Positions 3,661-43,170 of a DNA stretch of 43,170 nt are shown piece after piece. This DNA comes from a virus. The notes under the pieces were generated by a model, which made no database searches, had not been told where the DNA came from, and saw nothing but the letters and a program-made list of their open reading frames with translations. How positions within the stretch are numbered: the stretch's first letter is position 1; each line of letters opens with the position of its first letter. The stretch is from positions 1 to 43,170 of the IMG/VR virus record IMGVR_UViG_3300037041_002342; one strand, written 5' to 3'. Made by a program: the position numbers and the translations under genes.

Positions 3661-3676
3661 GACTCAAGGGTTTTGT

Positions 3677-3685: not shown

Positions 3686-3686
3686 T

Positions 3687-3935: not shown

Positions 3936-4294
3936 TTTAGGAACTTCAATTTTTCTTTTGCATTCTTGCTCTTTGCAACCCTCTTTGCAACATCAGAGTC
4001 TGCGCCGCCTTTTGGGTTCTTCTTGGGAGATCCCCAGGTTCCTTTGCCTCCTGTCAGAAATGAGTTCACGCGTGCGTAGCCCCATTGCTCCTGTCCAGCA
4101 CCTGGTCTGTGGCCAGTCTTCCATGCAGCCATTCCACGCCTCATGACGGTCCTGAGAGCTGACATGGAAACTCCAGTCTTCTCGGACTTCTTTTTTAACG
4201 CCTTCTCAATCTTTTGGCTGTCTATCTCCTTTGCCTCATTGACTGGTTCTGCGTCTTTTAGCAGAAATTCCTGGTATTCTAACAAGTTTCTCAT
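3932..4294 (-). CDS. Small basic phage protein with capsid-targeting-like leader
   Basis: 120 residues. The leader LLEYQEFLLKDAEPVNEAKE contains YQEF, identical to residues 4-7 of the T4 internal-protein leader, and a possible cleavage point after VNE at residue 20. The body carries a segment common in phage genomes: SGVSM-like TGVSMSALRTVMRRGMAAW, then TGHRPGAGQEQWGYARVNSF and GGKGTWG. In other phages this segment often occurs near or fused to the one in the next gene, and here the two genes overlap by ATGA. Divergent from the phosphatase gene, with only 19 bases between start codons. Probably an internal head protein; the biochemical role is unknown. Confidence 0.82.
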   Translation of the reverse strand: MRNLLEYQEFLLKDAEPVNEAKEIDSQKIEKALKKKSEKTGVSMSALRTVMRRGMAAWKTGHRPGAGQEQWGYARVNSFLTGGKGTWGSPKKNPKGGADSDVAKRVAKSKNAKEKLKFLK

Positions 4295-4299
4295 GGGAG

Positions 4300-4307
4300 T
4301 ATATAAT
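4300..4307. promoter_or_regulatory. Shared divergent promoter-like TATATAAT
   Basis: The 19 bases between the divergent start codons (4295-4313) contain TATATAAT on the plus strand. Because TATATA is self-complementary, one element could serve both the minus gene starting at 4294 and the plus gene starting at 4314. Transcripts would have almost no 5' leader. Confidence 0.4.
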
Positions 4308-4313
4308 CATAAC

Positions 4314-4739
4314 ATGAAGAAACAAACGGTCATAGTGGATCTTGATGGCACCATCTCAACAAAGGGAGATAGGGGCTGGTATGAGTACAACAAGGTCTCA
4401 GGGGATATACCAATCCAAGAGGTCATAGAGCTGGTAAGGATGCTGCACTCCAACGGAATCAACATTGTGTTCTGCACAGGACGTGAGGACTCATGCATGA
4501 AGCAATCGATTGATTGGATAAGGAGGAAAGTTTTCATGAGCGACATGGCGCATGTTGAGATATACATGAGGCCATCAGGAGATAGAAGGCCGGACTTTGT
4601 TGTCAAGAAGGAGATCTACGTAAACAAGATAGAGCCAAGGCACAACGTGTGGTTCGTGCTTGACGACAGAAGCTCTGTTGTTAAAATGTGGAGGGACATT
4701 GGTCTTGTCTGCCTCCAGGTTGCAGAAGGGGACTACTAG
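4314..4739 (+). CDS. Polynucleotide 3'-phosphatase (HAD family, Pnkp phosphatase domain only)
   Basis: 141 residues from ATG 4314; an in-frame upstream extension would run antisense through the neighbouring gene, so it is rejected. It matches the C-terminal phosphatase half of T4 polynucleotide kinase (PseT): nucleophile motif VDLDGT near residues 8-13, FCTGRED in the middle, then PDFVVKKEI, and WFVLDDRSSVVKMWRDIG followed by the ending CLQVAEGDY. The kinase half with its P-loop is absent. Such enzymes remove 3'-phosphates from broken DNA or RNA ends so that a ligase can act. A kinase or ligase partner is not visible in this window. First gene of a three-gene plus-strand cassette, one base before the next ATG. 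Confidence 0.85.
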   Translation: MKKQTVIVDLDGTISTKGDRGWYEYNKVSGDIPIQEVIELVRMLHSNGINIVFCTGREDSCMKQSIDWIRRKVFMSDMAHVEIYMRPSGDRRPDFVVKKEIYVNKIEPRHNVWFVLDDRSSVVKMWRDIGLVCLQVAEGDY

Positions 4740-4740
4740 G

Positions 4741-5316
4741 ATGAAGTTCACCGGAAATGAGTCAAAGGAGGAACTGCTCTACAAGGGAATAGAGCTCCTT
4801 GAGAGGTTCTCTGAGAAGAACGGCATAAAGATGCCTAAGGTCTTCATAGACTCAAGTACTGTAAGAGCATACGGGCTGTTCTATCCAAACAACATCATAC
4901 ACGTAAACATGAAGCTGTGCAGGCCTCCTGTGAAGGTCCCAGGATACGACTGGACGTTTCCTGGTTACATACAAGACCTTACTCCGTATGGCATACTTGC
5001 CCATGAATTTGGCCACTACATATCAGACATGCTTGGTAAGAAGTTCAGGAAGAACTTCATCAACATAAAGAAGATAGAAGAAAATGTGACGTCAACTGAT
5101 GAGAGAGGGCTAGATGAGAAGATGGCAGAGGCAGCAAGGCTCTTCATAACAAATCCAGACCTTTTGAAGAGGGGCCGACCTCATCGGTATGAGATATTCA
5201 GCAGACACTACGAGCCAATAGTCAGGAACAGGTGGAAGACGGTCCTAACCAATGCACATCCAAAGATAGTTTCTGCTGCAGAAAGATGGATAGAACGAGG
5301 TTATATAAAAAAATAG
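4741..5316 (+). CDS. Zinc-metallopeptidase-like protein (HEFGH motif)
   Basis: 191 residues from the ATG at 4741, directly after the stop of the phosphatase gene. The motif LAHEFGHYISDML near residues 85-97 is a gluzincin/metzincin-type HExxH zinc site. A third ligand may come from the ERGLDEKMAEAARLF helix about 30 residues later. The fold outside this is unassigned. No signal peptide or membrane segment is seen, so it probably acts in the cytoplasm or in the virion. The family of small phage zincin-like proteins is known, but substrates are not. Cotranscribed with the phosphatase and the 58-residue gene that follows. Confidence 0.7.
   Translation: MKFTGNESKEELLYKGIELLERFSEKNGIKMPKVFIDSSTVRAYGLFYPNNIIHVNMKLCRPPVKVPGYDWTFPGYIQDLTPYGILAHEFGHYISDMLGKKFRKNFINIKKIEENVTSTDERGLDEKMAEAARLFITNPDLLKRGRPHRYEIFSRHYEPIVRNRWKTVLTNAHPKIVSAAERWIERGYIKK
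5301..5308 (+). promoter_or_regulatory. TTATATAA element before the 58-residue gene
   Basis: TTATATAA sits inside the last codons of the metallopeptidase-like gene, 15 bases before the ATG at 5324. It resembles the ATATATA late element but could be chance in AT-rich codons (Tyr-Ile-Lys-Lys). Confidence 0.3.
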
Positions 5317-5323
5317 TTAAGCC

Positions 5324-5500
5324 ATGAAGAAGTACTCAGAAGTTGCCCCAATCGTAAAGAGCAACATAAAGAAGATCAATGCAGAGACGGAGAGAAGCTT
5401 TGCGATGAAGGACATTGAAAACGTCCTCAGCAAGCACAACGCTGCATCGATATCAGAGCTTCCACTCAGCGTGAAGGCACAGCTGATGAACGGAAAGTAA
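5324..5500 (+). CDS. 58-residue hypothetical protein
   Basis: ATG at 5324, TAA at 5498-5500. It begins MKKYSEVAPIVKSNIKKIN and ends ELPLSVKAQLMNGK. Charged and predicted helical, with no cysteine or membrane segment. Codon choice matches its neighbours (AGA for Arg, ATA for Ile), it lies 7 bases after the preceding stop and just before a terminator hairpin, which supports it as a real gene. The family is not recognised. Confidence 0.65.
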   Translation: MKKYSEVAPIVKSNIKKINAETERSFAMKDIENVLSKHNAASISELPLSVKAQLMNGK

Positions 5501-5522
5501 CATCCATTGTTTACAACGACAT

Positions 5523-5557
5523 AAAGGGCTCCATTGATTTTTCAGTGGAGCCCTTTT
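5523..5557 (+). terminator. Rho-independent terminator
   Basis: AAAGGGCTCCATTG (5523-5536) pairs with CAGTGGAGCCCTTT (5543-5556) with one G-T wobble around a six-base loop, followed by T. It ends the phosphatase/metallopeptidase/58-residue cassette. The A tract on the left arm could make it work on both strands. Confidence 0.85.
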
Positions 5558-8689: not shown

Positions 8690-10024
8690 TTATCCGACCA
8701 ATTTTTTGAACATCGTGATAGGGATTATTATCCTAGTTGACCCGTCTGTATAGAGGCCTTTGATATCAGGCCTTTCTGTCCTTCTAAATCCATGTGTGTT
8801 GCCCCATCCAAGAACATCCGCTCTTACTGATCGTATGGTTGACCTTGAGTCCTTTCTTGCATCTATCCTGTTTGTGTACTCCTCAAACTTGTTCTGCCCT
8901 ATCTGCCCATCAGCAAGCAGTGCTTTAATGATGTTCTTGAACTCAGGAGATAGGTAGCTTATCTTGTACACCTTTATTCCATTGTACTCGTCTTCTTCCA
9001 GACCAGAAGAATATGCCGATTGGTCTTCTTCTCTTTCTGCCTGTCTAGGTGTCGGTATCACGCTTCCTGTTGACATGATGTTTGTGTCACCTATGAGGTC
9101 ATACACCCATGCGCAGCAACCTATGATGAGCATCTTCTGATAAAGGCCAAAAAGGTGTGTGTTGTACAGCGCGCCCATCCATGTTTCTCTTCCTTGCTCA
9201 GGAAGTGCATTGCTCTTTTCTATCACCATCTTTACAGCCGACTTTATTGCAGACATTGCACCTTCCATGTCTGGCAGGTTTGCTTCTAGGTCAGCATCTA
9301 CTATGAAAGAATTGAATGCGCTCTTAACATCTGGATTTATTCCTGCTGTTATAGCATTGGGCTCATACACAGTCGTGTCAAGCCACTTTACATATTGCTT
9401 ATTGTTTGCAATGTTGTTCACAAGCCATGCAAGTGCCTTCTGCCAAGATGACTTTGTGAAGAACGACTTTAGGCTCGTGAATATCTTTGTCATCGGCCCA
9501 GCTGTCGGGTCCGCAGACTTCGTGAGGATTATGGATTCAGACTGGGCCTGTATTGATTCTCCAAGCGATCCTCGTATGAGAAATGCCTCAAACGCAGCTA
9601 TGAACTCTGCCAGATTTTCCTTCTCCTGGTTGTAGAGGTCAAGCTTCTTCTTTGTTCCCCAGTATCCTCTGAGCTTCGCCTTGATTTTTTGCCTCTCCTT
9701 TTCCGGTATAGCAGCATTGAAGATCTTCTTTGTCTTTATGCCCTTCCATGCCTCTACCGCAAACGTGTTTACCATCTGTGCAGCAAACACAGATAGGTCC
9801 TGTTCAGGGCTAAGTATTTCATAGAACGCAGATGCCTTTGGGAACGACTTCTTTTCAATGCCAAAATCCCAAAGCCATCCTGAAACCTTGACATCCGACA
9901 GTGCCTTTCCATCAAGGTTTATACCATCTCCTACAGCCTCATTCATCGGAACGAGATCTGATATCTGCCTTCCTTCAAACATCGGCTTGGGGAGGAATGA
10001 TTCTATGTTCTTAATGTTCTTCAT
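8690..10024 (-). CDS. Putative internal head protein, 444 residues
   Basis: The start is taken as ATG 10024. A TTG five codons earlier would translate the promoter-like element as MIYTS. The leader runs MKNIKNIESFLPKPMFEGRQ and reaches VPMNEAV, with a possible cleavage after Glu29; IESF replaces the aromatic pair. A hydrophobic stretch around residues 305-320 (LIIGCCAWVYDLIG) might be membrane-active. The family is not recognised. Between the 739- and 290-residue genes in the block after the portal. Inferred to be packaged in the head. Confidence 0.8.
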   Translation of the reverse strand: MKNIKNIESFLPKPMFEGRQISDLVPMNEAVGDGINLDGKALSDVKVSGWLWDFGIEKKSFPKASAFYEILSPEQDLSVFAAQMVNTFAVEAWKGIKTKKIFNAAIPEKERQKIKAKLRGYWGTKKKLDLYNQEKENLAEFIAAFEAFLIRGSLGESIQAQSESIILTKSADPTAGPMTKIFTSLKSFFTKSSWQKALAWLVNNIANNKQYVKWLDTTVYEPNAITAGINPDVKSAFNSFIVDADLEANLPDMEGAMSAIKSAVKMVIEKSNALPEQGRETWMGALYNTHLFGLYQKMLIIGCCAWVYDLIGDTNIMSTGSVIPTPRQAEREEDQSAYSSGLEEDEYNGIKVYKISYLSPEFKNIIKALLADGQIGQNKFEEYTNRIDARKDSRSTIRSVRADVLGWGNTHGFRRTERPDIKGLYTDGSTRIIIPITMFKKLVG

Positions 10025-10028
10025 GCTT

Positions 10029-10037
10029 GTATATATC
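10029..10037 (-). promoter_or_regulatory. Late-promoter-like element GATATATAC
   Basis: The minus strand reads TGATATATAC, in which TGA is the stop codon of the upstream 739-residue gene. It ends only 4 bases before ATG 10024, so a transcript from it would be nearly leaderless. Confidence 0.45.
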
Positions 10038-12255
10038 AATTCGTCTTTGATGTGATCATGGAGACAAGGTAGTCCTTCAGCTTGACGAGTGACTTGTCTC
10101 CTGGCTTTCCTGTTACCGGAAGACCCAGCTTCTCTTGGTACGCCTTGATTGCATCCTGTGTGTCATCGTCCAATGTTCCAGAGACAACAACGCTAGGAGT
10201 TTGGCCTTCCTTCCTCTGTATCTGGTTGAGGACCTTCTGGTATTCCTCTATCTCCTGTCTTGTGAAAGACTCCTCATACTCGCCTGCCTCTGTTGAGACG
10301 ATCATCTTGCATATCTTTTCAAGGCCATACAGGTTCATCATTGACCTCATTATTATGCCAAAGGTGGAATACTCCATGACGCCGTATAGCGTTCTCAGCT
10401 TGCCCATCTCCTTGTATACGTCTGAGAACTCAGAGTTAAGGGACAGGTACATCCTTGAGAGCTGCTTCTTTGACTCAAGATCAAAGTCCTGTTCGAGAAG
10501 GGAATTTATGGCATCGACGGTTGCATAGAGGCCGTCTGCATCAAACCCGTAAAACGTCTTGAATGGATCCCTGTTTATGTTGTATGAAAGTATGAGGCCT
10601 GTCATTGCAACGAAAGCCTCTTCCTTCTCACTTAGCTGTTCACCAAGGTCCTTCTCTATCTGTCTGGATCTCTCATTGAACTCCTCTTGCGTTATCACAC
10701 CGTTCTCTTTGAGCGCCTCAGTTACGTCTGACTGGACGAAATCATTCATGATCTTACGCTTGAACGTCGAGAACATCTTCAAGAACTCTCTGGATTCTTC
10801 AATGAGCTCTTGTGTGTTGACAGGCTCATTCGATCCCAACAGTATCTTCATGTTTGGGTTTGAGTAGCTGATGTATCCGTATTCATCAAGAGATGTAGGA
10901 GATCCCTCATCAAAGAACGTTTCCTCTATCGCCTCTGCTGCCATTCCATCTGCCTGTGCAACAACGCTTATGAGTTTTGCTATTCCTATCTTCTCATTTA
11001 TCTTATCTGTAAACCCATAGAAAAGTGAGGACTTCTTCAGGGAATCTTCGTTCTCCTTAAAGTACTTTTCTGGGTATTCAAAGCAAAGCTGTGCAGTCTT
11101 TGCAAAGAAGTCAGCAGTTGTGCTTCCTGCCTTTAGCATCGTATCAAGCTCCTTTGCGTCATCTATTGGAAGGTTCTCTGATCCTCCTGCAAAGAAGAGC
11201 TTGAATATCTCTGCAAAGCTTGCGGTGTTTGTATCGATCTTCGTCAGGGAAACACCTTCCTGCATGAACTTTTCTTTAGATTCTTCCAGGCCTCTTTGGA
11301 AGCTATCGACTGCCTTGTTCTGCTGTTCATTCTTTAGGTAGTTCAACACAATGCCGCCTGTGTACACTGTTGTAGCTAGAACGAATGCTCTCTTGAGGTT
11401 TCTCTTGAATCCGTTCCATAGGCCTCCGTTTTTGTCTGATGGCTTTGATCTTGACGGTCTTGAAACGTCATCGAGGTTTGACTTCCCATCATCTGCCATC
11501 TCTCTGGAAAGCCTCTTTACAAAACCTTCCTTTCCTTGTGACTTAAGCCCTGGAACGGCCTCATCAGCAAGGTTTGCGCCCGGCTCCATGCCTCTTCCAA
11601 GTATTCCGTTCCTTGAGTATATCCTGCTTGAGGACTTTGTGTAAACGCTTGTGCCGCTTGCGCCCTTTAGGAAATCATCCGACTTCTGGGCATACTGCCT
11701 TGCTGCAGCAAGCTTATCAAGGTCGCCAGATTTTGCTGCATCATCAACGGAGCTCTGTGCGTTCTTGATGTCATCCATGTACTGGTTTCTTAGCTTCCTT
11801 GTTGGAATGTCATCTATCTTTGATGTAAGATCATCTATTGCCTTCTGCTCTACGCCTATCTTCTTTACCTTTTCGAGGTACTTCTGTGATGACTGTCTTG
11901 CAGCATTGATCATCCCTTCATCTCCGGCATGATAGCCTGCTATGTACTTCTTTGTTATGTCGTCGCCCTCTTTCTGTAACGCCCTTCTAGACTCCTTCGA
12001 AAGCGACTGCCACCAGGGTTGCTTCTGTGTGTTTATGACATCAGCAAGACCCTTTTCCAGCTTTGATACATCATCAGCAGATGCACCAAACATCTTTCTG
12101 ATGATGCTTCCGACTCCTTTGAATCCGCTCTTGACGAGGTCATCAACCGTTCTTCCTGTCTGTCTTGCGACCGTTGATAGCGCAGCAGAACGTGCATCCT
12201 CATTCAAAGGACCAGCGTTGCTCTGTTTGTTCCACTGATTGAAGTTCTTTATCAT
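10036..12255 (-). CDS. Putative ejected internal head protein with peptidoglycan-binding-like C-terminus
   Basis: 739 residues. The leader MIKNFNQWNKQSNAGPLNED has FNQW and LNE at residues 17-19. A long charged helical region follows, then a hydrophobic segment near residues 290-310 (RAFVLATTVYTGGIVLNYL). The last 65 residues resemble a PG_binding_1 domain: VLNQIQ, then SGTLDDDTQDAIKAYQEKLG and LPVTGKPGDKSLVKL. No catalytic cell-wall motif is seen. A leader for head packaging, a membrane segment and a cell-wall-binding tail together suggest a protein delivered with DNA during cell entry. The domain match is by eye and the role is inferred. Confidence 0.82.
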   Translation of the reverse strand: MIKNFNQWNKQSNAGPLNEDARSAALSTVARQTGRTVDDLVKSGFKGVGSIIRKMFGASADDVSKLEKGLADVINTQKQPWWQSLSKESRRALQKEGDDITKKYIAGYHAGDEGMINAARQSSQKYLEKVKKIGVEQKAIDDLTSKIDDIPTRKLRNQYMDDIKNAQSSVDDAAKSGDLDKLAAARQYAQKSDDFLKGASGTSVYTKSSSRIYSRNGILGRGMEPGANLADEAVPGLKSQGKEGFVKRLSREMADDGKSNLDDVSRPSRSKPSDKNGGLWNGFKRNLKRAFVLATTVYTGGIVLNYLKNEQQNKAVDSFQRGLEESKEKFMQEGVSLTKIDTNTASFAEIFKLFFAGGSENLPIDDAKELDTMLKAGSTTADFFAKTAQLCFEYPEKYFKENEDSLKKSSLFYGFTDKINEKIGIAKLISVVAQADGMAAEAIEETFFDEGSPTSLDEYGYISYSNPNMKILLGSNEPVNTQELIEESREFLKMFSTFKRKIMNDFVQSDVTEALKENGVITQEEFNERSRQIEKDLGEQLSEKEEAFVAMTGLILSYNINRDPFKTFYGFDADGLYATVDAINSLLEQDFDLESKKQLSRMYLSLNSEFSDVYKEMGKLRTLYGVMEYSTFGIIMRSMMNLYGLEKICKMIVSTEAGEYEESFTRQEIEEYQKVLNQIQRKEGQTPSVVVSGTLDDDTQDAIKAYQEKLGLPVTGKPGDKSLVKLKDYLVSMITSKTN

Positions 12256-12262
12256 CTGCTGT

Positions 12263-14407
12263 TTACTTTTTCTTTAGGTATTCTTCTATTGCTTCTGTGA
12301 GCTTCTCCACAATTGGCATCCATTCATCGTCCTCCATTGAATCCATCTTGTGACTCTCCTTCACCTGGTCTCTGAGTTCTTTGCTTATTGCACCGTCCTC
12401 AAACAGTACGTCTTCTATCTCATTGACGAAGGTTCTTAGAGAGTACTTTATGACCTCCAACAGGAATGGTGTGACAAGGTACGCAAATGGATACTGTTCG
12501 CCTCCTAATGCCCTTCCTTTATCAGTATCATTAAGTGCCTTTACAAACCATGAAAGAACGTTGAAGTATTCCTGGTACCTTGCGTCCTTTTGGTTGCTAG
12601 GACCACCAAAGGCAACCTTTGAATGGTACATGATGCTACCCATTGAGATGCACATGTTCTTGACATATGTCTTAAAATCTTCGAGGTCTTTGATCTTATA
12701 AACAAGCTCATCATCTATTTCTATCGAGTACCCGGAAGATGTCTTCTTCATGGTGGCAAAATTGAACTGGTCCAAAAATGTTTCATTGAACGCTTTCAGT
12801 AGGTTCTCGCCTTCAATTGCCTTTGTAAAGAACTCCTTTCCTGATGACGCAATGTCCTTCACCGTCTGCCAAGTACTTGTTGGGCTGAATGCGCTTAGCT
12901 TGCTCTTTGTTATTTCATCAAGTATGAAGTCGCCAACGTTTGCCTTTGCAAATGCCACAGAGTCCTCGTTCTTGTCGCTTAGAGTTTTTGCAGTCTCATT
13001 TCCTCCACTGAAGAGAATGAAGTTTATCTCGGCTACCGCATTGCTGAAGTCCCCGCCTCCAAACTGCCCCAATAGATCAGTCAATTCCATTATTGTAATG
13101 AGAGATTCCTTCTCCTTTCCTAATCTTTCAATGTACATTGCAGCTTCATTTGCGTCATACTTGACAAACATGGCTTCAATGAGGGCTCTATCTTTCTTTG
13201 TCTGGAAGTACTGCGTCTTACTTCTTATGTCACCTATTACCTTATCGAGGTCATCTATGATGTTTTTGAACTTTGCGACCCTCTCTGTTGCTGCAACAAA
13301 AGCTTGGTTGTTTATGAAGTAAACACCCTTGTCTGCCTCTCCAACATCAAGGACCCTTTGGTACTGTGATTTTTGCTTTCTCATTGTCTTTGCTGTCGCC
13401 TTGATCTTGTTTGATACCTCCTCAAGGCAAACTATTCCGCAAAGGATCTTTATGTACGGTTCCCACTTTGTGCCCTTTGCCCAGCCCATACCAATCTCAT
13501 CTATGTCATCTATTGATGAAAGCTCTGTTATCACATCGCTGACAATAGGTTCAAGCTTCGATGGAAACTTTATAGGTCCATCAGCAGCAGTAAATGATGG
13601 GTACTCCTTCGTCAACTGTTGGAACCTAACGATGTCAAAGTCTGCATTAGATCCACTGATGAACTCTGATAGCATCCTTATCGTCATCACCTGTCTGTTC
13701 GATGTGTTGTCTGGGCTTATGCTGTTCACTGCATCAAACATTGAATCAACAAAGTCCTTTATCTTCATTGATCCAGTGTCCTTCATGAATCCACTGAGTG
13801 GGTACTCGGTGAACATTCCAACGTTTTGGTTTGCAAAGTTCTCAAAGTATTGCTCTTGCGACGCCTTATCCGTCTTTATCCTGTTTGGATCCACCATGGA
13901 GGATGCAAAGATGGAATAGAATGATCTGTAAAGCTTCACAAGGTTGTCCTCCATGTCTGAGTCCAGTGATTCTGGAACAGATGCCATGAGATCCTTTGCG
14001 TTCTTTATAGACTCCTTGTTCTTTGCAATTATGAGATCCTGCTGTGAGAACAGCTTAACGAACAGCTGGTAGTACAGGTACATGAAGAACGTTTCCACGT
14101 ACTCATCGTACTCGATCTCTACATCGCCGTTTGGCTTCTCTGTCTTTGTTAGTTTAGCAAACTTCCTTATCTTCTTCTGCGCATCTTGAAGGGCTCCAAA
14201 GAGTTTTCCAAATGGAGCTATCAGACCATTGAACTTTTTGTATGTGAATCCATTTTCTGTCTCACCGAAGAACTTTGTTATCTCTGATCCGCGTCTTGAG
14301 ATTGTCTCGTTAGGAGAAAGCACCTTTGAAATTGGAAGAGGATCTGATCCTGGTGCCTCAGACTGTTTGAAAATATTTGGATTAAATTCTTCTGATAGGA
14401 ACTTCAT
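12263..14407 (-). CDS. Hypothetical large protein directly downstream of the portal, 714 residues
   Basis: Starts MKFLSEEFNPNIFKQSE, 13 bases after the portal stop, and is translated with it. Mostly alpha-helical in composition and acidic, with no membrane segment, zinc site or known motif. The start shows FLSEEF and later a VLSPNE tripeptide, which only weakly recall the leader signature of its neighbours. In T4 this position holds the prohead core and protease genes (67, 68, 21, 22), but no protease catalytic pattern was recognised here. It could be a prohead core or internal protein. Function unknown. Confidence 0.8.
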   Translation of the reverse strand: MKFLSEEFNPNIFKQSEAPGSDPLPISKVLSPNETISRRGSEITKFFGETENGFTYKKFNGLIAPFGKLFGALQDAQKKIRKFAKLTKTEKPNGDVEIEYDEYVETFFMYLYYQLFVKLFSQQDLIIAKNKESIKNAKDLMASVPESLDSDMEDNLVKLYRSFYSIFASSMVDPNRIKTDKASQEQYFENFANQNVGMFTEYPLSGFMKDTGSMKIKDFVDSMFDAVNSISPDNTSNRQVMTIRMLSEFISGSNADFDIVRFQQLTKEYPSFTAADGPIKFPSKLEPIVSDVITELSSIDDIDEIGMGWAKGTKWEPYIKILCGIVCLEEVSNKIKATAKTMRKQKSQYQRVLDVGEADKGVYFINNQAFVAATERVAKFKNIIDDLDKVIGDIRSKTQYFQTKKDRALIEAMFVKYDANEAAMYIERLGKEKESLITIMELTDLLGQFGGGDFSNAVAEINFILFSGGNETAKTLSDKNEDSVAFAKANVGDFILDEITKSKLSAFSPTSTWQTVKDIASSGKEFFTKAIEGENLLKAFNETFLDQFNFATMKKTSSGYSIEIDDELVYKIKDLEDFKTYVKNMCISMGSIMYHSKVAFGGPSNQKDARYQEYFNVLSWFVKALNDTDKGRALGGEQYPFAYLVTPFLLEVIKYSLRTFVNEIEDVLFEDGAISKELRDQVKESHKMDSMEDDEWMPIVEKLTEAIEEYLKKK

Positions 14408-28398: not shown

Positions 28399-29589
28399 TT
28401 AGAATAGTCTTTTGCTTGTCACTAGGTTTCCCGGCACAGGAGGAAGTCCTATCACCTCAAGGAAACGGTTTATCGGAGATATCAGAGTCTTCTCAAACTG
28501 AACATCAAAGTTCATCTTTGGCGCAAACTCATAGGGAAAAGAATCTGTGTGGTATGCAAACACCTGGTCGTCGCCTTCTGCATAGTAGTACTTTACCTTG
28601 TCTCCGGACTTTATCATTTCATACTTTGCCTTCCACTTTTTGTTCTGTCCAAGCATGTAGTTGTAGTAACCAGCTGCCCTGACGTGAACTGGACACTTGC
28701 TTCTGACCTCAAAGGGCTTTGTAAGATCCCTGTCGTTTGCGATATACTTCTCGTAGTCGCTAATGCCCTTTGTTATCGATATCTTCTCAATTGGTTGGAT
28801 CTTGAACTCTGCCTTTAGATCCTTAAGTATCTTCACAAAGTCTGCGTACTGTATCGACTTCTTGTGTGTGAAGATGTACTTCATCAGCTCCTTCATCTTC
28901 TCTCTGACGAACGGAGGCGTCGATCCCTGGACGATCTCAACACCTTTTGGCTTGATCTTTGTCAGGCTCTGTATGTCGATGCCTGGATCCTTCCAGACGG
29001 GATTGAGAACGTACTTCTTCTTTGCAATGAATATCGCAGACTCTGATATCATCTCCATCTCAAAGTTCTGGAGGTTATTAGTATTGAACTTGTCTCCATA
29101 CTTGTCAAAGCACTTGTTTAGAAAGGCCTTCAAACGGACATCGTACAGCCTGAGTATCAGCTCCTTCGGATCTCCTTGCCACTTACAGCTTCTTATGATT
29201 GGTTCAAACGTTACGTATGATGAATCAGTGTCGTTGTAGAACGTGACCATATCCGTTATGGGAGAGACCTCACAGTCTATGCCAAGCTGCTCGTGGGTCT
29301 GTGTGTCCTTGTGCCAGAACTCCTTAAAGTACAGGTTTATGTACTTGTCTGCATTCTTGATGATGTCCTGGCCCTGAAGCGTGATAGCCTCAGCGATGTC
29401 AGTGTTGTACATGATGAAGTACTTGCTTCCATATGCCCCATAGACAGAGTTGATGAGGAGCTTGATCGACTGCTCCTCATTCGTCTTCTGCATCTTTATT
29501 ATCTCAAGCCTGTCTATCTCTTTCTGTATCTCATCATGGGACCTTGATGTCCAGTCTCCAAGATCAAAAGATATGGAATCAATCTTCAT
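28399..29589 (-). CDS. 43B: Family B DNA polymerase, C-terminal fragment (gp43B-like)
   Basis: 396 residues; T4 gp43 has 898. Residues 35-70 contain motif B, SIKLLINSVYGAYGSKYF (K43, N47, Y50, G51), and motif C is YNDTDSSYV at 118-126 (D120, D122). The thumb region follows, and the protein ends in TSKRLF, a possible sliding-clamp-binding tip like T4 LDFLFG. The exonuclease domain and motif A (DxxSLYPS) are absent, and the gene upstream is the clamp, so the N-terminal half must be coded elsewhere. The split lies in the fingers, about 40 residues before motif B. Starts inside the end of the clamp gene (11-base overlap). Confidence 0.92.
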   Translation of the reverse strand: MKIDSISFDLGDWTSRSHDEIQKEIDRLEIIKMQKTNEEQSIKLLINSVYGAYGSKYFIMYNTDIAEAITLQGQDIIKNADKYINLYFKEFWHKDTQTHEQLGIDCEVSPITDMVTFYNDTDSSYVTFEPIIRSCKWQGDPKELILRLYDVRLKAFLNKCFDKYGDKFNTNNLQNFEMEMISESAIFIAKKKYVLNPVWKDPGIDIQSLTKIKPKGVEIVQGSTPPFVREKMKELMKYIFTHKKSIQYADFVKILKDLKAEFKIQPIEKISITKGISDYEKYIANDRDLTKPFEVRSKCPVHVRAAGYYNYMLGQNKKWKAKYEMIKSGDKVKYYYAEGDDQVFAYHTDSFPYEFAPKMNFDVQFEKTLISPINRFLEVIGLPPVPGNLVTSKRLF

Positions 29590-30337
29590 TGACGACGCCT
29601 ATTATCGAGGTTGTGTCGGATTCAGTGGAGTATGTTATCACCTTATCTTCCGTGATGTTGAGCTTGAACGTGTCATCGCCAATGTAGGAGAGAAACTCCT
29701 TCTTGACCTTTATTGGCTTTTCAAGAGATCCTGTGACCTCATCAGGAAGCTGGTAGTCATAGAGGCTGTTGAACACATGGATCCTTCCTGACTCCTCATC
29801 CATCCTCAGAGACACAGTCTTCTCTGCTGAGTCGATGTCAAACAGGGATGTGATCTTCTTCATCTGGGCCTTGTGGATCGACGTCTGTGCGCCCTTCTCT
29901 GCAGACTTTATGATTCCATCGTAGACATGGTCGCCCAGTGCAACAACGTAGTCGAGCTCGGTGCATGCATTTATGATGGTGAGCGTGTCTGTGACAAACT
30001 TAACCTGCGAGCAAAGGAGTGAGTCCTTCTGCTTCTCACAGACGAATAATATCTCTATCTCTCCGTCAGGAAGAAGGTCTATGTTCTTCATGACGCGGTC
30101 GATGTTGAAGAACGGAACCTTGATTACACTAGGTGGAGCCTTCTCAAATGAGCCAAAGCCATCAAGTTCCATCTGGCTCCTCTTGATGAATCCCCTGTCC
30201 GGCGTGTACGTTTTTGAGACTATCCGGTCCTCATAGACCTCTATGAGGAGGGATTGGCTGACCTTCTTGAACTTCTCAAGAAAGTCTCTGAATTTTTCTA
30301 TGCTATTTGTTGTAATTGTGAAGTTAGCACTTGCCAT
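29579..30337 (-). CDS. 45: Sliding clamp (gp45-like)
   Basis: 252 residues (T4: 228). A processivity ring for the polymerase and, in T4, an activator of late transcription. The sequence is divergent: two-domain, beta-rich, with IEVYEDRIVSKTYTPDRGF early, FFNIDRVMKNIDLLPDGEIE mid-protein and a final strand ITYSTESDTTSIIGVV that fits the closing strand of clamp folds. No catalytic motif. Support also comes from its place directly before the polymerase fragment, with overlapping ends, as gp45 belongs with the replisome genes. AAGGA sits 7 bases before ATG 30337. Confidence 0.65.
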   Translation of the reverse strand: MASANFTITTNSIEKFRDFLEKFKKVSQSLLIEVYEDRIVSKTYTPDRGFIKRSQMELDGFGSFEKAPPSVIKVPFFNIDRVMKNIDLLPDGEIEILFVCEKQKDSLLCSQVKFVTDTLTIINACTELDYVVALGDHVYDGIIKSAEKGAQTSIHKAQMKKITSLFDIDSAEKTVSLRMDEESGRIHVFNSLYDYQLPDEVTGSLEKPIKVKKEFLSYIGDDTFKLNITEDKVITYSTESDTTSIIGVVNED

Positions 30338-34064: not shown

Positions 34065-34114
34065 GATGTTTTATCTTTTTAGTTGAAGGTTGAACAAATA
34101 TACTAAAAGAAGGC

Positions 34115-34124
34115 AAATATATAC
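34115..34124 (+). promoter_or_regulatory. Late-promoter-like element before fibre 2
   Basis: AAATATATAC lies 13 bases before ATG 34138 in the divergent gap 34065-34137. The gap must also hold the gp39 promoter on the other strand. No terminator is seen in it. Confidence 0.5.
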
Positions 34125-34137
34125 AAAAAAATTCTGG

Positions 34138-37100
34138 ATGTTAACTACCGAGCAGATCATAAACGCCCTTCAGAAGAAGCTCCTGGGCAGAGTAGCAGAC
34201 ACAGACCCAAACGCTCAAGTATTTGAAGAAACGATATCATCAGCAATACGGGTTGATATTGACCAGGTTTGGGGAAAATCTGATCTCATACCTTCGACAA
34301 ATCCTCTAAGTGGACCATCCTTCGGCGATGGAAGCACCTATTCTGATGACGGTTACGACATCATACAGAAGAAAGAGAAGGCAGCATTAGACTTCATTGA
34401 AGGGTCTGTCTATGCGTTCCAGTCTGCGTCCATCTCAAGGATCATATATCAGCCAGGATACGAAGTTACACTTTGGGCGCTTTCTGACTCGAGCCTTGAT
34501 CCGAACGATCCGAACAACTACACAGTAGAGATCGTTCAAGGCGTCAACACGGACTACATAATAGATCCAGACAGTGGTGTTATCCTGTTCCTCAATGGGC
34601 TTCCTGACAACGTCGACGCAACACACCCTCCTAGGATAGACTGCTATCTCTACATAGGACCTCTTGGATTTGAGATTGCACAAGGACCAACAGGACCTTC
34701 AGGAGGACCAACAGGACCAACTGGATCGACTGGTTCAACTGGACCTGTCGGTGCGACAGGCCCTACGGGCTTTGGCGTAACAGGCCCAACAGGTGCAGGC
34801 GTTCAAGGTGCTCAGGGCCCAACGGGTCCTGCGGCAGGCCCAACAGGCGCATCAGGAACACAGGGTCCACAAGGGGCACAGGGTCTCCAAGGAAGACAAG
34901 GCCTTCAAGGCCTTCAAGGCCTTCAGGGAAGACAAGGAAACCAAGGCGTTCAAGGGCTTCAAGGCACACAAGGAACGCAAGGAACCCAAGGCTTCACTGG
35001 AAACTCAGGAGCACAAGGACTTCAGGGAGTACAAGGACTCCAAGGACCGGAGGGCGATATTGGGCCTACAGGATCTGACGGATACCAGGGAGCACAGGGA
35101 CTACAAGGCCTGCAAGGTGCAACTGGCATTCAAGGGATGCAGGGGCTTCAAGGGCTTCAAGGATCACAGGGCATAACAGGAGACCAGGGGGCGCAAGGCC
35201 TTCAAGGCTTCCAAGGAGACGGAGGACCACAAGGTCTTCAGGGCATAACAGGCGCAGGTAGCGATGGAGCTCAAGGCCTTCAAGGCTTCCAAGGAAGGCA
35301 AGGAACTCAGGGAACTCAGGGTGTTCAGGGCTTCGGAGGAGCAATAGGATACTACGGATACTTCCTGGATCTTAATGATCAACCAAACAACAGTGCGTTG
35401 AGTCCTAATGTCGTGACATATGACACAACGATAGACTCAAGTGGTGTTTCTGTTCAGAACAATTCTGAAGTGACGTTTGCATATCCAGGTGTATACAATG
35501 TTCAGTTCTCTTTCCAGCTTGATAAGACTGATGCTGGAGTGGATTCAATAGACATTTGGCTTTCTCAAAACGGATCTCCTGTTGCAAACTCAAACACTAG
35601 GATAAACCTAACCGAAACAAACGATAAGAAGGTCGCTGCATGGAACTTCATTGTCACAACGACCGTTGCGAATGAATACGTTGAGCTGTACTGGTACTCT
35701 GCTGATGTTGACATGCGTTTGCACTATTTGGGAGCACAGTCAACGCCGACAAGGCCAGCAACACCTTCAGTAATACTTAGTGCGCAACAGGTGATGTACA
35801 CTCAGGTTGGCCCTCAGGGTCTTCAAGGTGCACAAGGAAATCAAGGAAATCAAGGAAATCAAGGTGTTCAGGGTCTACAAGGAAGACAAGGAAACCAGGG
35901 CAACCAAGGTGTTCAAGGCCTCCAGGGAAATCAAGGAACACAGGGCATGCAGGGAGTTCAAGGTGTTCAAGGCCTCCAGGGACTAACTGGTGCAGGCGTT
36001 CAAGGTATGCAAGGCCTTCAAGGAAACCAAGGTGTTCAAGGCCTCCAGGGACTAACTGGTGCAGGCGTTCAGGGCGTCCAAGGAAATCAAGGAATTGATG
36101 GCCCACAAGGACTTCAGGGGCTTCAAGGATTTCAGGGTCGTCAAGGCGCAACAGGTTCAAATGGTCTCACAGGAAACCAAGGCATGCAAGGGGCACAAGG
36201 AGTTCAAGGCATGCAAGGCTTCCAAGGACGACAAGGTGGAGTTGGAGATTTTGGACCGCAGGGATTCCAAGGTCTTCAGGGAATTCAAGGCCTACAAGGC
36301 GTACAAGGCCTGCAAGGAAATCAGGGCAACCAAGGTTTAACTGGCGCCGGAGTTCAAGGCATGCAAGGCTTCCAAGGACTTCAAGGCAACCAAGGTGCAC
36401 AGGGTGCACAGGGAGCTCAAGGCGTACAAGGCCTACAAGGAAATCAAGGGGTTCAGGGCGTTCAAGGCAACCAAGGAAATCAGGGCGTTCAAGGTGCGCA
36501 AGGAGCTCAAGGCGTACAAGGCCTACAAGGAAATCAAGGCAACCAAGGAAACCAGGGCGTTCAGGGAACACAGGGCGTTCAGGGAACACAAGGTCTTCAG
36601 GGCAATCAAGGCAATCAGGGCGTTCAAGGTGCACAGGGAGCTCAAGGCGTACAAGGCCTACAAGGAAATCAGGGCGTTCAAGGGGTTCAGGGAACACAAG
36701 GCGTTCAAGGTGCACAGGGAGCTCAAGGCGTACAAGGCCTACAAGGAAATCAAGGAAACCAGGGTGTTCAGGGTGCACAAGGAGCACAGGGTAATCAGGG
36801 AGTTCAGGGAACACAAGGTGTTCAAGGCCTTCAGGGAAGGCAGGGCAACCAAGGAAATCAAGGAGTTCAAGGTGCACAAGGAGTTCAGGGTGCTCAAGGC
36901 ACACAGGGAACTCAGGGCACACAAGGACTGCAAGGTGCACAAGGTGCACAGGGCAATCAAGGAGTTCAGGGGCTTCAGGGTCTGCAGGGAAGACAAGGAA
37001 ACCAAGGCAACCAAGGAGTTCAGGGTGCACAAGGCACACAGGGAACGCAAGGCACACAGGGGCTGCAAGGCAATCAAGGAGTTCAGGGTGCACAAGGCAC

Positions 37101-37959
37101 ACAGGGAACACAAGGCACACAAGGACTGCAAGGCAATCAAGGAGTTCAGGGTGCACAAGGAGTTCAGGGAACACAAGGCACACAAGGACTGCAAGGAGTT
37201 CAGGGAACACAGGGTCTTCAAGGCAACCAAGGAGTTCAAGGTTTGACAGGTGCTGGAGTTCAAGGTATGCAAGGCCTTCAGGGCAACCAAGGAGTTCAAG
37301 GTTTGACAGGTGCTGGAGTTCAAGGACTACAAGGAAATCAAGGAAACACTGGAATACAAGGGCTTCAAGGGCTTCAAGGAACACAGGGGCTTCAGGGATC
37401 TAATGGAAACATAGGCCCTCAGGGTCTGCAAGGATTCCAGGGACGCCAAGGAACGCAGGGCACACAAGGATTGCAAGGATTGCAAGGCCTTCAAGGTCTA
37501 CAGGGATTCCAAGGAATTCAAGGATACCAGGGGCTTGGAACACAGGGCATTCAAGGACTTCAAGGCTCTCCTGGGACTGTACTAACACTTGCTGCTGGAA
37601 ACTACGTACCTACTTTAGGAGGGCACGGAGCATGGACGCCTGACAGCCTATTAGTAAGATGCTTCCAATACATGAGAGTAGGTAGTGTCGTGACGGTAAG
37701 TGGCCAGCTTCTCATAGATCCTGCAGGAGCAGGACAGGCAACATTTTATGTAACACTTCCTGTTGCGTCAAACATCTCTAATTCTTGTGAGATAGCTGGA
37801 ACAGGTGCGACAGAATATGGAGCGGTTTTAGGTGGAAATGGCTTGACGCCTGCCAGAGTTTTTGGAGATCCTACCAATGACAGGGCATTGGTTGAATTCT
37901 ATGCCCCTTCTGGGTCATCATTTGAAATGTCTATACATTTCACATACTTGATATCCTAA
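34138..37959 (+). CDS. Collagen-like virion fibre protein 2 (complete)
   Basis: 1273 residues from ATG 34138; an in-frame TTG at 34090 would only translate the promoter region. Residues 1-182 are the N-terminal domain shared with the other two fibres (IPSTNPL, DGSTYS, GYDI). A short GPTG-type collagen part (34684-34880) changes to G-x-Q triplets. A C1q/TNF-like domain follows at about 403-557 ([15 protein letters not shown]), then a G-x-Q stalk at 558-1144. The C-terminal 129 residues ([11 protein letters not shown], then [12 protein letters not shown], ending FTYLIS) resemble a tip domain found on other phage fibres. It is likely a long trimeric fibre with a distal receptor-binding head; this is inferred. 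Confidence 0.88.
34684..37570 (+). repeat. Nine-base periodic collagen repeats in fibre 2
   Basis: Glycine every third codon with Gln at nearly every Y position (G-x-Q), apart from the C1q-like island at 35343-35808. DNA words such as GGNNNNCAR recur every nine bases. Stop codons are rare in all frames here, so long antisense open frames are artefacts. Confidence 0.9.
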
Positions 37960-37976: not shown

Positions 37977-40900
37977 TTGTCTGCTGTAGATCTTTTTAGA
38001 TCAGGACCAATAGTAAACCCACAGCCTGTAAAGGTTAGATTGGAGTATCCAAACTTCGGAGATGTTTCCGGAGGTGCAGTACTAGTATACTTTGGATACG
38101 TCCCAGAGAACAACCCTCTGTTTTCTAACACATATCCGGATGGTGCGACATACAGCTACGGCGGACTTGACATAGTAGAGAAGATAGAGTTACAGACTCT
38201 GTCAACTGTTGAGACGAGCCCGTATGCATTCACAAATGCAAGGCTCACGCACGTCATACCAAAGAACTATGGAGTAAACTACGATCCTATCGTATACCTC
38301 CCAGATGAGGATGACAACTATACGATAGTAGCAGATCCTAAGATCTACACACTATTTTATTACCCAGACACAGATAGCTTTGTGCTGTATTTTAGCATGA
38401 AGCCATCTGAGCTTGCATATGACTCTTCTGGAATGCCAACAAAGGAGCCAAAGATCACGTGTTACAAATACGTCTCTATTGTTGGTCTAGAAAACTTCAT
38501 TCCAGCAGGATCAGGACTTCAAGGATTTCAGGGAATTCAAGGCCTTCAAGGTTCTGGAGTCCAAGGTATGCAGGGGCTTCAGGGACTACAGGGAAGACAA
38601 GGAAACCAAGGCAGCCAAGGAACACAGGGCTTAACAGGTGCAGGGTTTCAAGGTATGCAAGGCCTTCAAGGAAACCAAGGCAGCCAAGGAACACAGGGCT
38701 TAACAGGTGCAGGAGTCCAGGGTATGCAAGGCCTTCAAGGAAACCAAGGCGGCCAAGGAACACAGGGCTTAACAGGCGCAGGTTTTCAAGGTATGCAAGG
38801 CCTTCAAGGAAACCAGGGAGCAGAGGGCACACAAGGCACACAGGGCTTAACAGGTGCCGGAGTTCAAGGTATGCAAGGCCTTCAAGGAAACCAAGGAGCA
38901 CAGGGCACACAGGGAACACAGGGGGCAACAGGTGCAGGAGTTCAAGGTGCACAGGGCAACCAAGGAGTTCAAGGTGCACAGGGAGCACAAGGCAACCAGG
39001 GTGTTCAAGGGGCACAAGGAGTTCAAGGAAACCAGGGCAACCAAGGAGTTCAGGGGCTTCAGGGTCTACAGGGAAGACAAGGAAACCAGGGCAACCAAGG
39101 AGTTCAGGGGCTTCAGGGTCTACAGGGAAGACAAGGAAACCAGGGCAACCAAGGAGTTCAGGGAGCTCAAGGAGTACAAGGAACTCAAGGTGCACAAGGA
39201 ACTCAAGGAGTTCAGGGCGCACAGGGGGTTCAAGGAACACAGGGGCTGCAGGGTAATCAAGGAAACCAAGGAGTTCAAGGTGCACAGGGCAATCAAGGTG
39301 TTCAGGGAACACAAGGCAACCAGGGTGTTCAAGGCCCACAAGGGGTTCAGGGTACTCAAGGCACACAGGGAACACAAGGCCCACAAGGATTGCAAGGTAA
39401 TCAAGGGGTTCAGGGTACTCAAGGCACACAGGGAACACAAGGCCCACAAGGACTGCAAGGTAACCAAGGGGTTCAGGGTACTCAAGGCAACCAAGGTGTT
39501 CAAGGGGCACAAGGAGTTCAAGGTGCCCAGGGCAACCAAGGAAACCAAGGGGTTCAGGGGCTTCAGGGTCTACAGGGAAGACAAGGAAACCAAGGGGTTC
39601 AGGGTGTTCAAGGAACCCAAGGTGTTCAAGGTGCACAAGGCAATCAGGGTGTTCAAGGGGCACAAGGAGTTGAAGGAACTCAAGGAGTACAGGGTGTTCA
39701 GGGAACACAAGGAGTTGAAGGAACTCAAGGAGTACAGGGTGTTCAGGGTCTTCAGGGTGCACAAGGCAACCAAGGTGTTCAAGGTACACAGGGCAACCAA
39801 GGTGTGCAGGGAACACAAGGTCTTCAAGGTTCAGGCGTCCAAGGAACCCAAGGCGTTCAAGGAACCCAAGGGGTCCAGGGCAACCAAGGTGTGCAGGGAA
39901 CACAAGGTCTTCAAGGTTCAGGCGTTCAAGGAACCCAAGGGGTCCAGGGCAACCAAGGTGTGCAGGGAACACAAGGTCTTCAAGGTTCAGGCGTTCAAGG
40001 TCTACAGGGAATCCAAGGTTTAGGGAGCCAAGGAAATCAAGGAACAATAGGACCACAAGGATTACAGGGGCCTAACAGTGGAATGCTTACCCCAAGCACA
40101 TATGTTGTACAGGGGAAATTAAATGCAGATCAGTCAATATCAAGCGGCTCAGATGTTGTAATACAATTTATTGATGATTTTGACCCACAGAATTGGTGGG
40201 ATTCTTCAACATATAAATTCACTCCGAACGTTGCTGGTTATTATCTGATAGATGTTGGTGCTTGGTTGGATGATGCAAACAGTACAACGGCACAGGGAAA
40301 TATACAGGCAAGAAAGAACGGAAGCACATTTGCAATAAATCAGTCGCCAACTAATGATGTTACAGGACAAGGTTTTTCTATCACAAAGATTGTGTACTTA
40401 AATGGTACTAGTGACTATGTTGATTTTACGTTCTATCAATCTACCGGTTCAAACGTTAACATTCTAGCTGGAACTGGATCTGGATCTGGCACTTGGTTCT
40501 CTGCAAATCTTTTAGCATATGGCCAACAGGGATCCCAGGGAATGCAAGGGCTTCAAGGCATACAAGGTTTGATCGGTTCACAGGGATTACAAGGTCTTCA
40601 AGGAACTCAAGGGGTTCAAGGAACTCAAGGCAATCAAGGTGTTCAGGGAACTCAAGGAGTTCAAGGAACTCAAGGCGTTCAGGGTTCAGGTGTTCAGGGA
40701 ACTCAAGGAGTTCAAGGTGCACAGGGCAATCAAGGCAACCAAGGAGTTCAAGGTGCACAAGGAAATCAGGGTGTTCAAGGTGTTCAGGGAACTCAAGGAG
40801 TTCAAGGTGCACAAGGAAATCAGGGTGTTCAAGGTGTTCAAGGAGCTCAAGGCAATCAGGGTGTTCAGGGAACTCAAGGAGTTCAAGGTGCACAGGGCAA

Positions 40901-43170
40901 TCAAGGCAACCAAGGGGTTCAAGGAACTCAAGGCGTTCAGGGTTCAGGTGTTCAGGGAACTCAAGGAGTTCAAGGTGCACAAGGAAATCAGGGTGTTCAA
41001 GGTGTTCAAGGAGCTCAAGGCAATCAGGGTGTTCAGGGAACTCAAGGAGTTCAGGGCTTGCAGGGCCTACAAGGCACACAAGGAGCTCAAGGCAACCAAG
41101 GGGTCCAAGGAACTCAAGGCAATCAGGGTGTTCAAGGAACTCAAGGGGTCCAAGGAACTCAAGGCAATCAGGGTGTTCAAGGAACTCAAGGGGTTCAAGG
41201 AACTCAAGGCAACCAAGGGGTACAAGGAACTCAAGGAGTTCAGGGAACACAAGGAGTTCAGGGTCTGCAAGGAACACAGGGCAACCAAGGGGTACAAGGA
41301 ACTCAAGGAGTTCAGGGAACACAAGGAGTTCAGGGTCTGCAAGGAACACAGGGCAACCAAGGAGTTCAGGGAACCCAAGGTGTTCAAGGTGCACAAGGCA
41401 ATCAGGGTGTTCAGGGAACTCAAGGAGTTCAGGGCTTGCAGGGCAATCAAGGAGTTCAGGGAACCCAAGGGGCCCAAGGAGCACAAGGCAATCAGGGTGT
41501 TCAGGGAACTCAAGGAGTTCAGGGTGCACAAGGAGTTCAGGGTGCACAAGGAGTTCAGGGTGCACAAGGAGTTCAGGGTGCACAAGGAGTTCAAGGAACC
41601 CAAGGCAACCAAGGTGTTCAGGGCAACCAAGGAGTTCAGGGTCTGCAAGGAACACAGGGCAATCAAGGAGTTCAGGGAACCCAAGGGGCCCAAGGAGCAC
41701 AAGGCAATCAGGGTGTTCAGGGAACTCAAGGAGTTCAGGGCTTGCAGGGCAATCAAGGAGTTCAGGGAACCCAAGGGGCCCAAGGAGCACAAGGCAATCA
41801 GGGTGTTCAGGGAACTCAAGGAGTTCAGGGCTTGCAGGGCAATCAAGGAGTTCAGGGTGCACAAGGAAATCAGGGTGTTCAAGGTGTTCAAGGAGCTCAA
41901 GGCAATCAGGGTGTTCAGGGAACTCAAGGAGTTCAGGGTGCACAAGGAGTTCAGGGTCTGCAAGGAACACAGGGCAACCAAGGAGTTCAAGGAACACAAG
42001 GAGCTCAAGGGCTCCAAGGTCTGCAGGGATTACAAGGACTTCAGGGTCTACAGGGATTGCAAGGGCCTCAAGGTTATCAAGGCGAGTTCGGAATATCTGG
42101 CGGTGTAAACTACTTCTTTAATTATACGATATCTCAAACCCCTAGTCCTTACAAACAGCTAGGAAGAGTTACAACATCAGTAGGTCCACAGTCCATTCAG
42201 ATCAACCTGACACCAAATCAACAGAATGTTATTGTAGGAACAGGGTTTATAACTGATGTCAATGACCCAAATGCACTTTTGATACCGAATGGAATTTGGC
42301 ATGCATATGCATACTTCACAAAGAATGCAGAGAACGACAATCTAAAATATTATGTTACTGTATCAAAGTATGACGGTGCAACAACAACATTGATTACAAC
42401 AGGAGATTCAGTACAAATAGGTTGGGACACAAATAATACAACACCTGTTGAAGTTAAGTCAAACATAGTAGTGCCAACTAATACTTTGAGCCTTACTGAC
42501 AGAATTATTGTAAACCTCTACGTAAACAATGACGACAACCAAAACAGGACAGTTTATTTCTATACAGAGGATGCCGTATATTCTTACTTGGTAACAACAT
42601 TCGGTGCAACAGGATCACAAGGATTACAAGGCCTTCAAGGGTGGCAGGGAGTCCAAGGAGTTCAGGGCTTACAGGGAGCACAAGGAAATCAGGGTGTTCA
42701 AGGTGTTCAAGGTGCACAAGGCAATCAAGGAGTTCAGGGAACCCAAGGCCTTCAGGGCAATCAAGGAGTTCAGGGTACACAAGGAGCTCAAGGAGTTCAG
42801 GGCTTGCAGGGTCTACAAGGGACACAAGGAGCTCAAGGAAATCAGGGGCCTCAGGGCAACCAGGGTGTTCAGGGAACACAAGGTCTTCAGGGTGCACAGG
42901 GCAACCAAGGAGTTCAGGGAACCCAAGGAGCTCAAGGTGCACAGGGCAACCAGGGAGTTCAGGGAACTCAAGGTCTTCAGGGACTGCAAGGACTGCAAGG
43001 AAGACAGGGCAACCAGGGAAATCAAGGAAATCAGGGTGTTCAGGGAGTTCAAGGTGCACAAGGAAATCAGGGCAACCAAGGAGTTCAGGGAACCCAAGGA
43101 GCTCAAGGTGCACAGGGCAACCAGGGAGTTCAGGGAACTCAAGGTCTTCAGGGACTGCAAGGACTGCAAG
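37977..43170 (+). CDS. Collagen-like virion fibre protein 3 (3' end beyond the right edge)
   Basis: Open for more than 1731 codons. The frame opens after TAA at 37968-37970, and TTG at 37977 is the only plausible start before the homologous domain. Residues 1-180 repeat the shared N-terminal domain ([27 protein letters not shown]). Order after that: G-x-Q stalk (38516-40080), C1q-like domain (40081-40510, [19 protein letters not shown]), second stalk (to about 42085), a domain starting [10 protein letters not shown] and ending [10 protein letters not shown] (about 42091-42605) that matches one in fibre 1, then more stalk. It follows fibre 2 by 17 bases and has no separate late element, so it is probably cotranscribed. 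Confidence 0.87.
41514..41585 (+). repeat. 18-bp unit in four exact tandem copies (fibre 3)
   Basis: GGAGTTCAGGGTGCACAA is repeated exactly four times, followed by a partial fifth copy, coding for (GVQGAQ)n. A likely site of copy-number change. Confidence 0.92.
41661..41840 (+). repeat. 90-bp unit in two exact tandem copies (fibre 3)
   Basis: 41661-41750 and 41751-41840 are identical, and the first 76 bases or so also occur from 41445. Each copy codes for 30 residues (ten G-x-Q triplets). In-frame duplications of stalk segments. Confidence 0.85.
42901..43170 (+). repeat. Direct repeat of about 99 bp spaced by 171 bp (fibre 3)
   Basis: 42901-42999 matches 43072-43170 and the match meets the window edge, so it may be longer. 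The offset is 171 bases, or 19 triplets. Confidence 0.85.

What the first reader, a model, noticed from the sequence alone, without database searches (positions are those of the whole stretch)
28399..29589. DNA polymerase gene is split in the fingers: only the C-terminal part is here
The 396-residue protein has motifs B and C but lacks the exonuclease domain and motif A. It starts with its own ATG, overlapping the clamp gene, about 40 residues before motif B. From memory, T4-like Aeromonas phages have split gp43A/gp43B genes and Rhodothermus phage RM378 has polymerase parts in separate genes. Here the missing part is not adjacent, so the active site must be assembled from two distant genes.
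Basis: partly seen in the sequence, partly recalled or inferred. Interest (0 to 1): 0.75.

Follow-up and report, generated by a model that had tools for sequence, protein, structure and literature searches.

The report
DNA polymerase split into two genes
This phage encodes only the back half of its DNA-copying enzyme here; relatives, including complete giant-phage genomes, carry the front half as a separate gene up to hundreds of kilobases away and no whole copy, so the enzyme is very probably built from two separately made proteins, an old and widespread arrangement in giant phages.

Summary
Window 28399-29589(-) is the C-terminal part of a T4-type family B polymerase: motifs B and C, thumb and C-terminal tail, no exonuclease, no motif A. 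It starts in the fingers. The window is a 43-kb fragment without the N-terminal part, but relatives supply it: a separate 461-474-aa gene (exonuclease + motif A). Modelled halves align to RB69 gp43 residues 5-506 and 519-893, so almost nothing is missing. Of 58 relatives carrying both halves, 52 have N upstream of C on the same strand (0.8-17 kb); six have them on opposite strands, about 99 to 618 kb apart. The latter include the window's nearest long relative (107 kb) and the complete circular Lak-A2 megaphage. No full-length PolB was found in any searched genome of this clade, so this is not a relic. The huge-phage halves form one clade (100/100), separate from the known gp43A/43B splits of Aeromonas and Acinetobacter phages, which break at the same fingers tip but stay adjacent. 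No intein or intron was found at this break. Non-covalent assembly is inferred, not shown. New variant of a known kind.

The parts
28399..29589 (-). PolB C-half gene (396 aa): fingers helix P, palm motifs B and C, thumb, C-terminal tail
29587..29589 (-). Start codon = break point of the polymerase (fingers tip, about RB69 gp43 residue 515-520)
   Evidence: relatives also start here or up to about 20 residues later
29437..29463 (-). Motif B, KLLINSVYG (K43-G51)
   Evidence: K43, N47, S48, Y50, G51 invariant in the 23 aligned C halves
29221..29238 (-). Motif C, YNDTDS (118-123), carrying the palm DTD aspartates
   Evidence: Y118, D120, T121, D122, S123 invariant
29011..29022 (-). KKKY (190-193), counterpart of RB69 KKRY
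   Evidence: invariant in the 23 aligned C halves; aligned to RB69 KKRY
28402..28422 (-). C-terminal tail ending in F; probable clamp-binding peptide (inference from T4 gp43)
   Evidence: L389 and F396 invariant
29579..30337 (-). Clamp-like gene (252 aa), overlapping the C-half start by 11 nt; immediately upstream of the C half in many relatives
   Evidence: weak PCNA match

Best explanation
The gene is one of two genes that together encode a T4-type (gp43-like) family B replicative DNA polymerase. The N half (about 461-474 aa) holds the N-terminal domain, the 3'-5' exonuclease, palm motif A and fingers helix N. The C half (this gene) holds fingers helix P with motif B, palm motif C, the thumb and the tail. 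The chain is cut at the solvent-exposed tip of the fingers. The two proteins are expected to assemble without covalent joining, through the antiparallel N/P helix pair and the shared palm sheet, so that motif A (N half) and motif C (C half) together bind the catalytic metals. The C half is co-encoded, often with overlapping codons, with a clamp-like protein; the N half stays next to ribonucleotide reductase and often dUTPase genes. Shown by sequence: the two complementary halves, their conservation, their co-occurrence, the absence of a full-length copy, and the separate loci in relatives. Inferred: that the window's own genome has the N half, that the halves associate, and that the complex is the replicase.
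For: Complementarity: modelled N half aligns to RB69 gp43 5-506 (Z about 29) and modelled C half to 519-893 (Z about 17). Co-occurrence: 58 relatives carry both halves, and 29 of 31 records chosen for their N half also hold a C half. No full-length PolB in any searched record of the clade, including complete circular Lak-A2. Catalytic residues conserved in both halves: D98/E100, D197, D293 and D378 of motif A (N); K43, D120, D122 (C). dN/dS 0.01-0.11 for both halves. Trees of N alone, C alone and joined each give one split clade (100; 100; 100/100). Literature: phage 25 gp43A and gp43B co-purify and have polymerase activity (PMC2988022); a phage of the same genus has the same break point.
Against: The window is a linear fragment and its own N half is unseen. 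No complex was modelled; the C half alone models poorly in the palm (pLDDT below 50 at 39-75 and 170-219), which fits a missing partner but also a shallow alignment of 23 rows. G004 is a single metagenomic contig and could be misassembled, although five other large genomes with widely separated halves, and the contig G057, agree. The clamp identity is weak.
Confidence: 0.88

Rival explanations
1. Relic: this is a decaying fragment and another polymerase replicates the genome.
For: It lacks half of the active site and the window is incomplete.
Against: dN/dS 0.05, motifs invariant across 23 aligned C halves, start and stop conserved, one N half always the only other PolB piece, no full-length PolB in complete Lak-A2 or five other genomes of 462-735 kb.
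Confidence: 0.03
2. The halves are rejoined into one chain by a split intein or by trans-splicing of split introns.
For: Split inteins do join PolB pieces in some phages (MIJ3, PMC6892783), and in LR756500 and Lak-A2 a second break at motif C carries intein halves.
Against: At the fingers break neither half carries extra residues: N tail plus C head is 108-148 residues against 145 in RB69 and 112 in a full-length relative. No intein match in the window C half. No Rfam match in the window or four relatives' loci. Each half has its own conserved stop and start.
Confidence: 0.05
3. Independent roles: the N half acts as a free exonuclease and the C half as a clamp-associated DNA-binding protein, with replication done by a host or other phage enzyme.
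For: Standalone PolB-like exonucleases exist, for example the PF10108 protein in G004.
Against: Motif A and helix N would be useless to an exonuclease, yet DF[AS]SLYP is retained in every N half aligned; motif C aspartates and motif B lysine are invariant in every C half aligned.
Confidence: 0.04

Closest known systems
Split gp43A/gp43B of Straboviridae (Aeromonas 25, 44RR, 50AhydR13PP; Acinetobacter Abraxas)
   Same: T4-type PolB broken at the same fingers tip (RB69 about 504-514, tested on Abraxas and 50AhydR13PP); two ORFs with separate stop and start; for phage 25 the products co-purify and are active (PMC2988022).
   Different: There the halves are neighbours (within about 3 kb) with a homing endonuclease or short spacer between them (PMC2988022), and on the tree they sit with unsplit RB69, away from this clade. 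Here the gap is 0.8 to 618 kb, six genomes have the halves on opposite strands, and the five close arrangements read have ordinary metabolic and clamp-like genes between the halves.
Huge-phage and Lak megaphage PolB (LR756500-504, LR745206, MK250019)
   Same: Same clade and same break; halves separate.
   Different: No mention of a split family B polymerase found in the main texts searched (PMC6784885, PMC7162821, PMC7824862); Lak-A2 and LR756500 have an extra split-intein break at motif C.
Rhodothermus phage RM378 polymerase
   Same: Polymerase parts in genes 57 kb apart.
   Different: Break lies between exonuclease and polymerase domains; the polymerase gene there covers most of the DNA_pol_B profile (41-378 of 453).
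PHROG families 1918 (382 aa) and 2062 (502 aa)
   Same: Existing families that match the C and N halves (E 8.5e-66 and 2.5e-80).
   Different: Database clusters named only 'DNA polymerase'; no statement of split or location.

Membership tests
T4-type family B DNA polymerase (gp43) | Palm motif C (DTD) and motif B (KxxxNSxYG) | tested here: met
   Invariant in the window and 22 relatives
T4-type family B DNA polymerase (gp43) | Palm motif A and 3'-5' exonuclease in the same genome | tested here: inconclusive
   Present as a separate gene in relatives; the window is a fragment and lacks it
T4-type family B DNA polymerase (gp43) | Closest fold and sequence is RB69/T4 gp43 | tested here: met
T4-type family B DNA polymerase (gp43) | DNA synthesis activity | not testable with these tools
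   Needs expression of both halves
Split gp43A/43B of Straboviridae | Break at the fingers tip between helices N and P | tested here: met
Split gp43A/43B of Straboviridae | Halves adjacent, separated by endonuclease or spacer | tested here: not met
   Window has no N half in 43 kb; G004 107 kb apart, opposite strands
Split gp43A/43B of Straboviridae | Shared descent of the split | tested here: not met
   Strabo splits group with unsplit RB69 (99/99); huge-phage splits form another clade (100/100)
Split-intein polymerases | Intein halves at the break | tested here: not met
   No extra residues at the fingers break, no intein Pfam match in the window C half; intein halves are detected at motif C in LR756500 and Lak-A2, so the test can see them
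Rhodothermus phage RM378-type split | Break between exonuclease and polymerase domains | tested here: not met
   Here the break is inside the fingers; RM378 separates exonuclease from polymerase

The most novel reading that the evidence does not exclude
In this huge-phage lineage the unlinked split is adaptive rather than a tolerated accident: the C half is made together with the clamp and loaded first, and the separately regulated N half, made with nucleotide-synthesis genes, completes the active site, so replication starts only when both modules are expressed.
Probability: 0.12. Interest if true: 0.8.

Novelty: new variant of a known kind. Interest (0 to 1): 0.6.

Why it matters
A replicative polymerase whose catalytic metal site is divided between two genes, in six genomes on opposite strands and about 100 kb or more apart, appears to be the only PolB of a widespread giant-phage clade that includes Lak megaphages. 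The same fingers-tip break arose independently in Straboviridae, which marks that loop as a naturally permissive cut site. It gives a direct test of how far an essential enzyme can be divided and scattered. It also matters for annotation: such phages may be reported as having a truncated polymerase, and marker-gene trees that use only one half may mislead.

Tried and rejected
Relic gene (rejected: constraint, no full-length copy). Split intein at the fingers (rejected: no extra residues; the motif-C intein in two relatives serves as positive control). Split intron (no Rfam match at gathering threshold in the window, L042, L144, L006, L057). Frameshift or misassembly producing a false stop (rejected: same break in relatives from many independent samples; N half elsewhere). 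Recovering the window's own N half: viral-contig scans with the G004 N half and with an alignment of N halves gave no contig that could be assigned to the window's species; nearest N halves are G004 and G057 (62% identical to each other). Vibrio phage PVA8: I first took the wrong ORF (L214 7703-8848) as its C half in the joined tree; Pfam places the C half at record 196377-197018, and PVA8 was left out of the separate N and C trees. Pfam and PHROG gave no name to the clamp-like protein. Literature searches for 'split DNA polymerase' with gp43, and for gp43A with gp43B, found no paper.

Full report
What is in the window. ORF 28399-29589 on the minus strand encodes 396 aa with its own ATG. It matches Pfam DNA_pol_B only from profile position 147 to 422 of 453, and RB69 gp43 from residue 540 to 883 by sequence. 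Motifs B and C, KKKY, the thumb and the C-terminal tail are present; the exonuclease and motif A are not. That name has only weak support: a profile of 18 relatives has PCNA-type clamps as its four best PDB matches, at E 0.03-0.12, with no Pfam or PHROG name. Around it are topoisomerase subunits, a RecA-like protein, a DnaB-like helicase, an SbcCD-like pair and a T4-type portal protein, so this is a T4-like replication region. The record is a 43-kb viral contig, probably a fragment.

The missing half exists in relatives. All 26 viral contigs found with the C half have the same short gene with a stop just upstream. Twelve of them also carry a separate N half with the exonuclease domain and motif A. 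Starting from the N half gave further loci; the closest again end at the fingers, and 29 of 31 records checked carry a separate C half. In total 56 records were placed with both halves, plus LR756504 and LR745206, making 58 (some are near-copies of each other). Fifty-two have N upstream of C on the same strand, 0.8-17 kb away. Six have them on opposite strands: LR745206 about 99 kb, G004 107 kb, LR756502 132 kb, Lak-A2 221 kb, LR756504 about 281 kb, LR756501 618 kb on a linear record. G004 is the long relative closest to the window (C halves 69% identical).

No full-length copy. Searches of whole records with DNA_pol_B found one N piece and one C piece (C sometimes in two stretches) and no full-length gene in the records of this clade, including the complete circular Lak-A2 genome and five others of 462-735 kb. 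One extra sub-threshold match in a 49-aa frame of LR756502 is probably noise.

The halves are complementary. In the alignment to full-length polymerases, N halves end and C halves start at the fingers tip between helix N and helix P; the exact first residues are loosely aligned there. AlphaFold models of each half, compared with solved structures, align to RB69 gp43 5-506 (Z about 29) and 519-893 (Z about 17). Several of the C-half alignments have large rmsd because the palm is poorly modelled alone. The combined spacing from motif A to motif B, 108-148 residues, is like that of uncut enzymes (145 in RB69, 112 in L073). Catalytic residues are invariant in both halves and dN/dS is 0.01-0.11.

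History. A tree of joined halves with unsplit relatives puts the huge-phage split sequences on one side of a branch (100/100), as do N alone (100) and C alone (100). The Aeromonas and Acinetobacter split polymerases group with unsplit RB69 (99/99). The same break therefore arose at least twice, unless refusion occurred. The joined tree contained one wrong C sequence (PVA8); the separate trees, without it, agree on the main point. Long branches meet in these trees, so finer placement, such as the window clade beside Lak, is uncertain and differs between the N and C trees. In the close arrangements read, the order is N, ribonucleotide reductase (absent in L057), clamp-like gene, C. In G004 and G057 the N half still sits between dUTPase and ribonucleotide reductase, while C stays with the clamp-like gene in the window, its near copies and G004. 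A simple reading, which is inference, is that the cluster broke between reductase and clamp in the window's lineage. G057 has no C half anywhere in its 133 kb.

How it probably works. Two chains fold together through the antiparallel fingers helices and the shared palm sheet; motif A comes from one chain and motif C from the other. Phage 25 gp43A and gp43B co-purify and have polymerase activity (PMC2988022, citing Petrov 2010), so such assembly is possible. Intein joining is unlikely here. In LR756500 and Lak-A2 a second break, inside motif C, does carry intein halves (N half with TGDHS, C half ending HN before Ser), while the fingers break carries nothing of the kind.

Compared with what is known. 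Split gp43 is known; Abraxas is annotated 43A/MobE/43B. RM378 has exonuclease and polymerase 57 kb apart. A review of jumbo phages describes a split Pol III-like enzyme in the group that includes Lak, but the passages read do not mention a split PolB (PMC7824862); the main texts of the Lak and huge-phage papers have no match for it either. Jug phages are reported with polymerase genes split by endonucleases (PMC12363816). What I did not find described is a fingers-split PolB whose halves lie far apart on opposite strands, fixed across a large clade. The library holds open-licence papers only, so an earlier description may exist.

Limits. The window's own N half is not seen. Assembly and activity are inferred. 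Most distances come from metagenomic contigs; Lak-A2 is a circular complete genome.

Noticed in passing
L133 (LR756500) 901-4316; L135 (Lak-A2) 3372-5523: The C half is broken a second time inside motif C (DTD/S) by split-intein halves, with an endonuclease-like ORF between in LR756500: a three-gene polymerase. G065 and G084 show the same two-piece pattern.
   Followed up: partly
window 1-3660(-), 34090-37959(+), 37977-43169(+): Three very long ORFs made of collagen-like Gly-x-Gln repeats (Pfam Collagen E 7e-112 for the middle one); two lie in tandem next to the topoisomerase gene.
   Followed up: no
L042 and L144, about 9500-13875: N half sits between dUTPase and a ribonucleotide reductase large subunit; reductase genes also follow N in most of the close arrangements read.
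   Followed up: yes
L066-L072, L098: A different PolB split: N part ends near RB69 residue 451, before fingers helix N, with the other part just downstream.
   Followed up: no
L099 (IMGVR 2595698455), about 9300-14400: PolB apparently in three pieces: 491 aa, a short middle piece and 379 aa.
   Followed up: no
L214 Vibrio phage PVA8 (record 193750-197417): Both gp43 halves are annotated as hypothetical proteins, about 1.1 kb apart.
   Followed up: partly
window 29579-30337 and its relatives (alignment A3): A clamp-like family without any convincing Pfam or PHROG match, next to the C half in most relatives read; only weak PCNA similarity.
   Followed up: partly
L041:1150-1917(-) in G004: A standalone PolB-like 3'-5' exonuclease (PF10108) besides the polymerase N half.
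   Followed up: no
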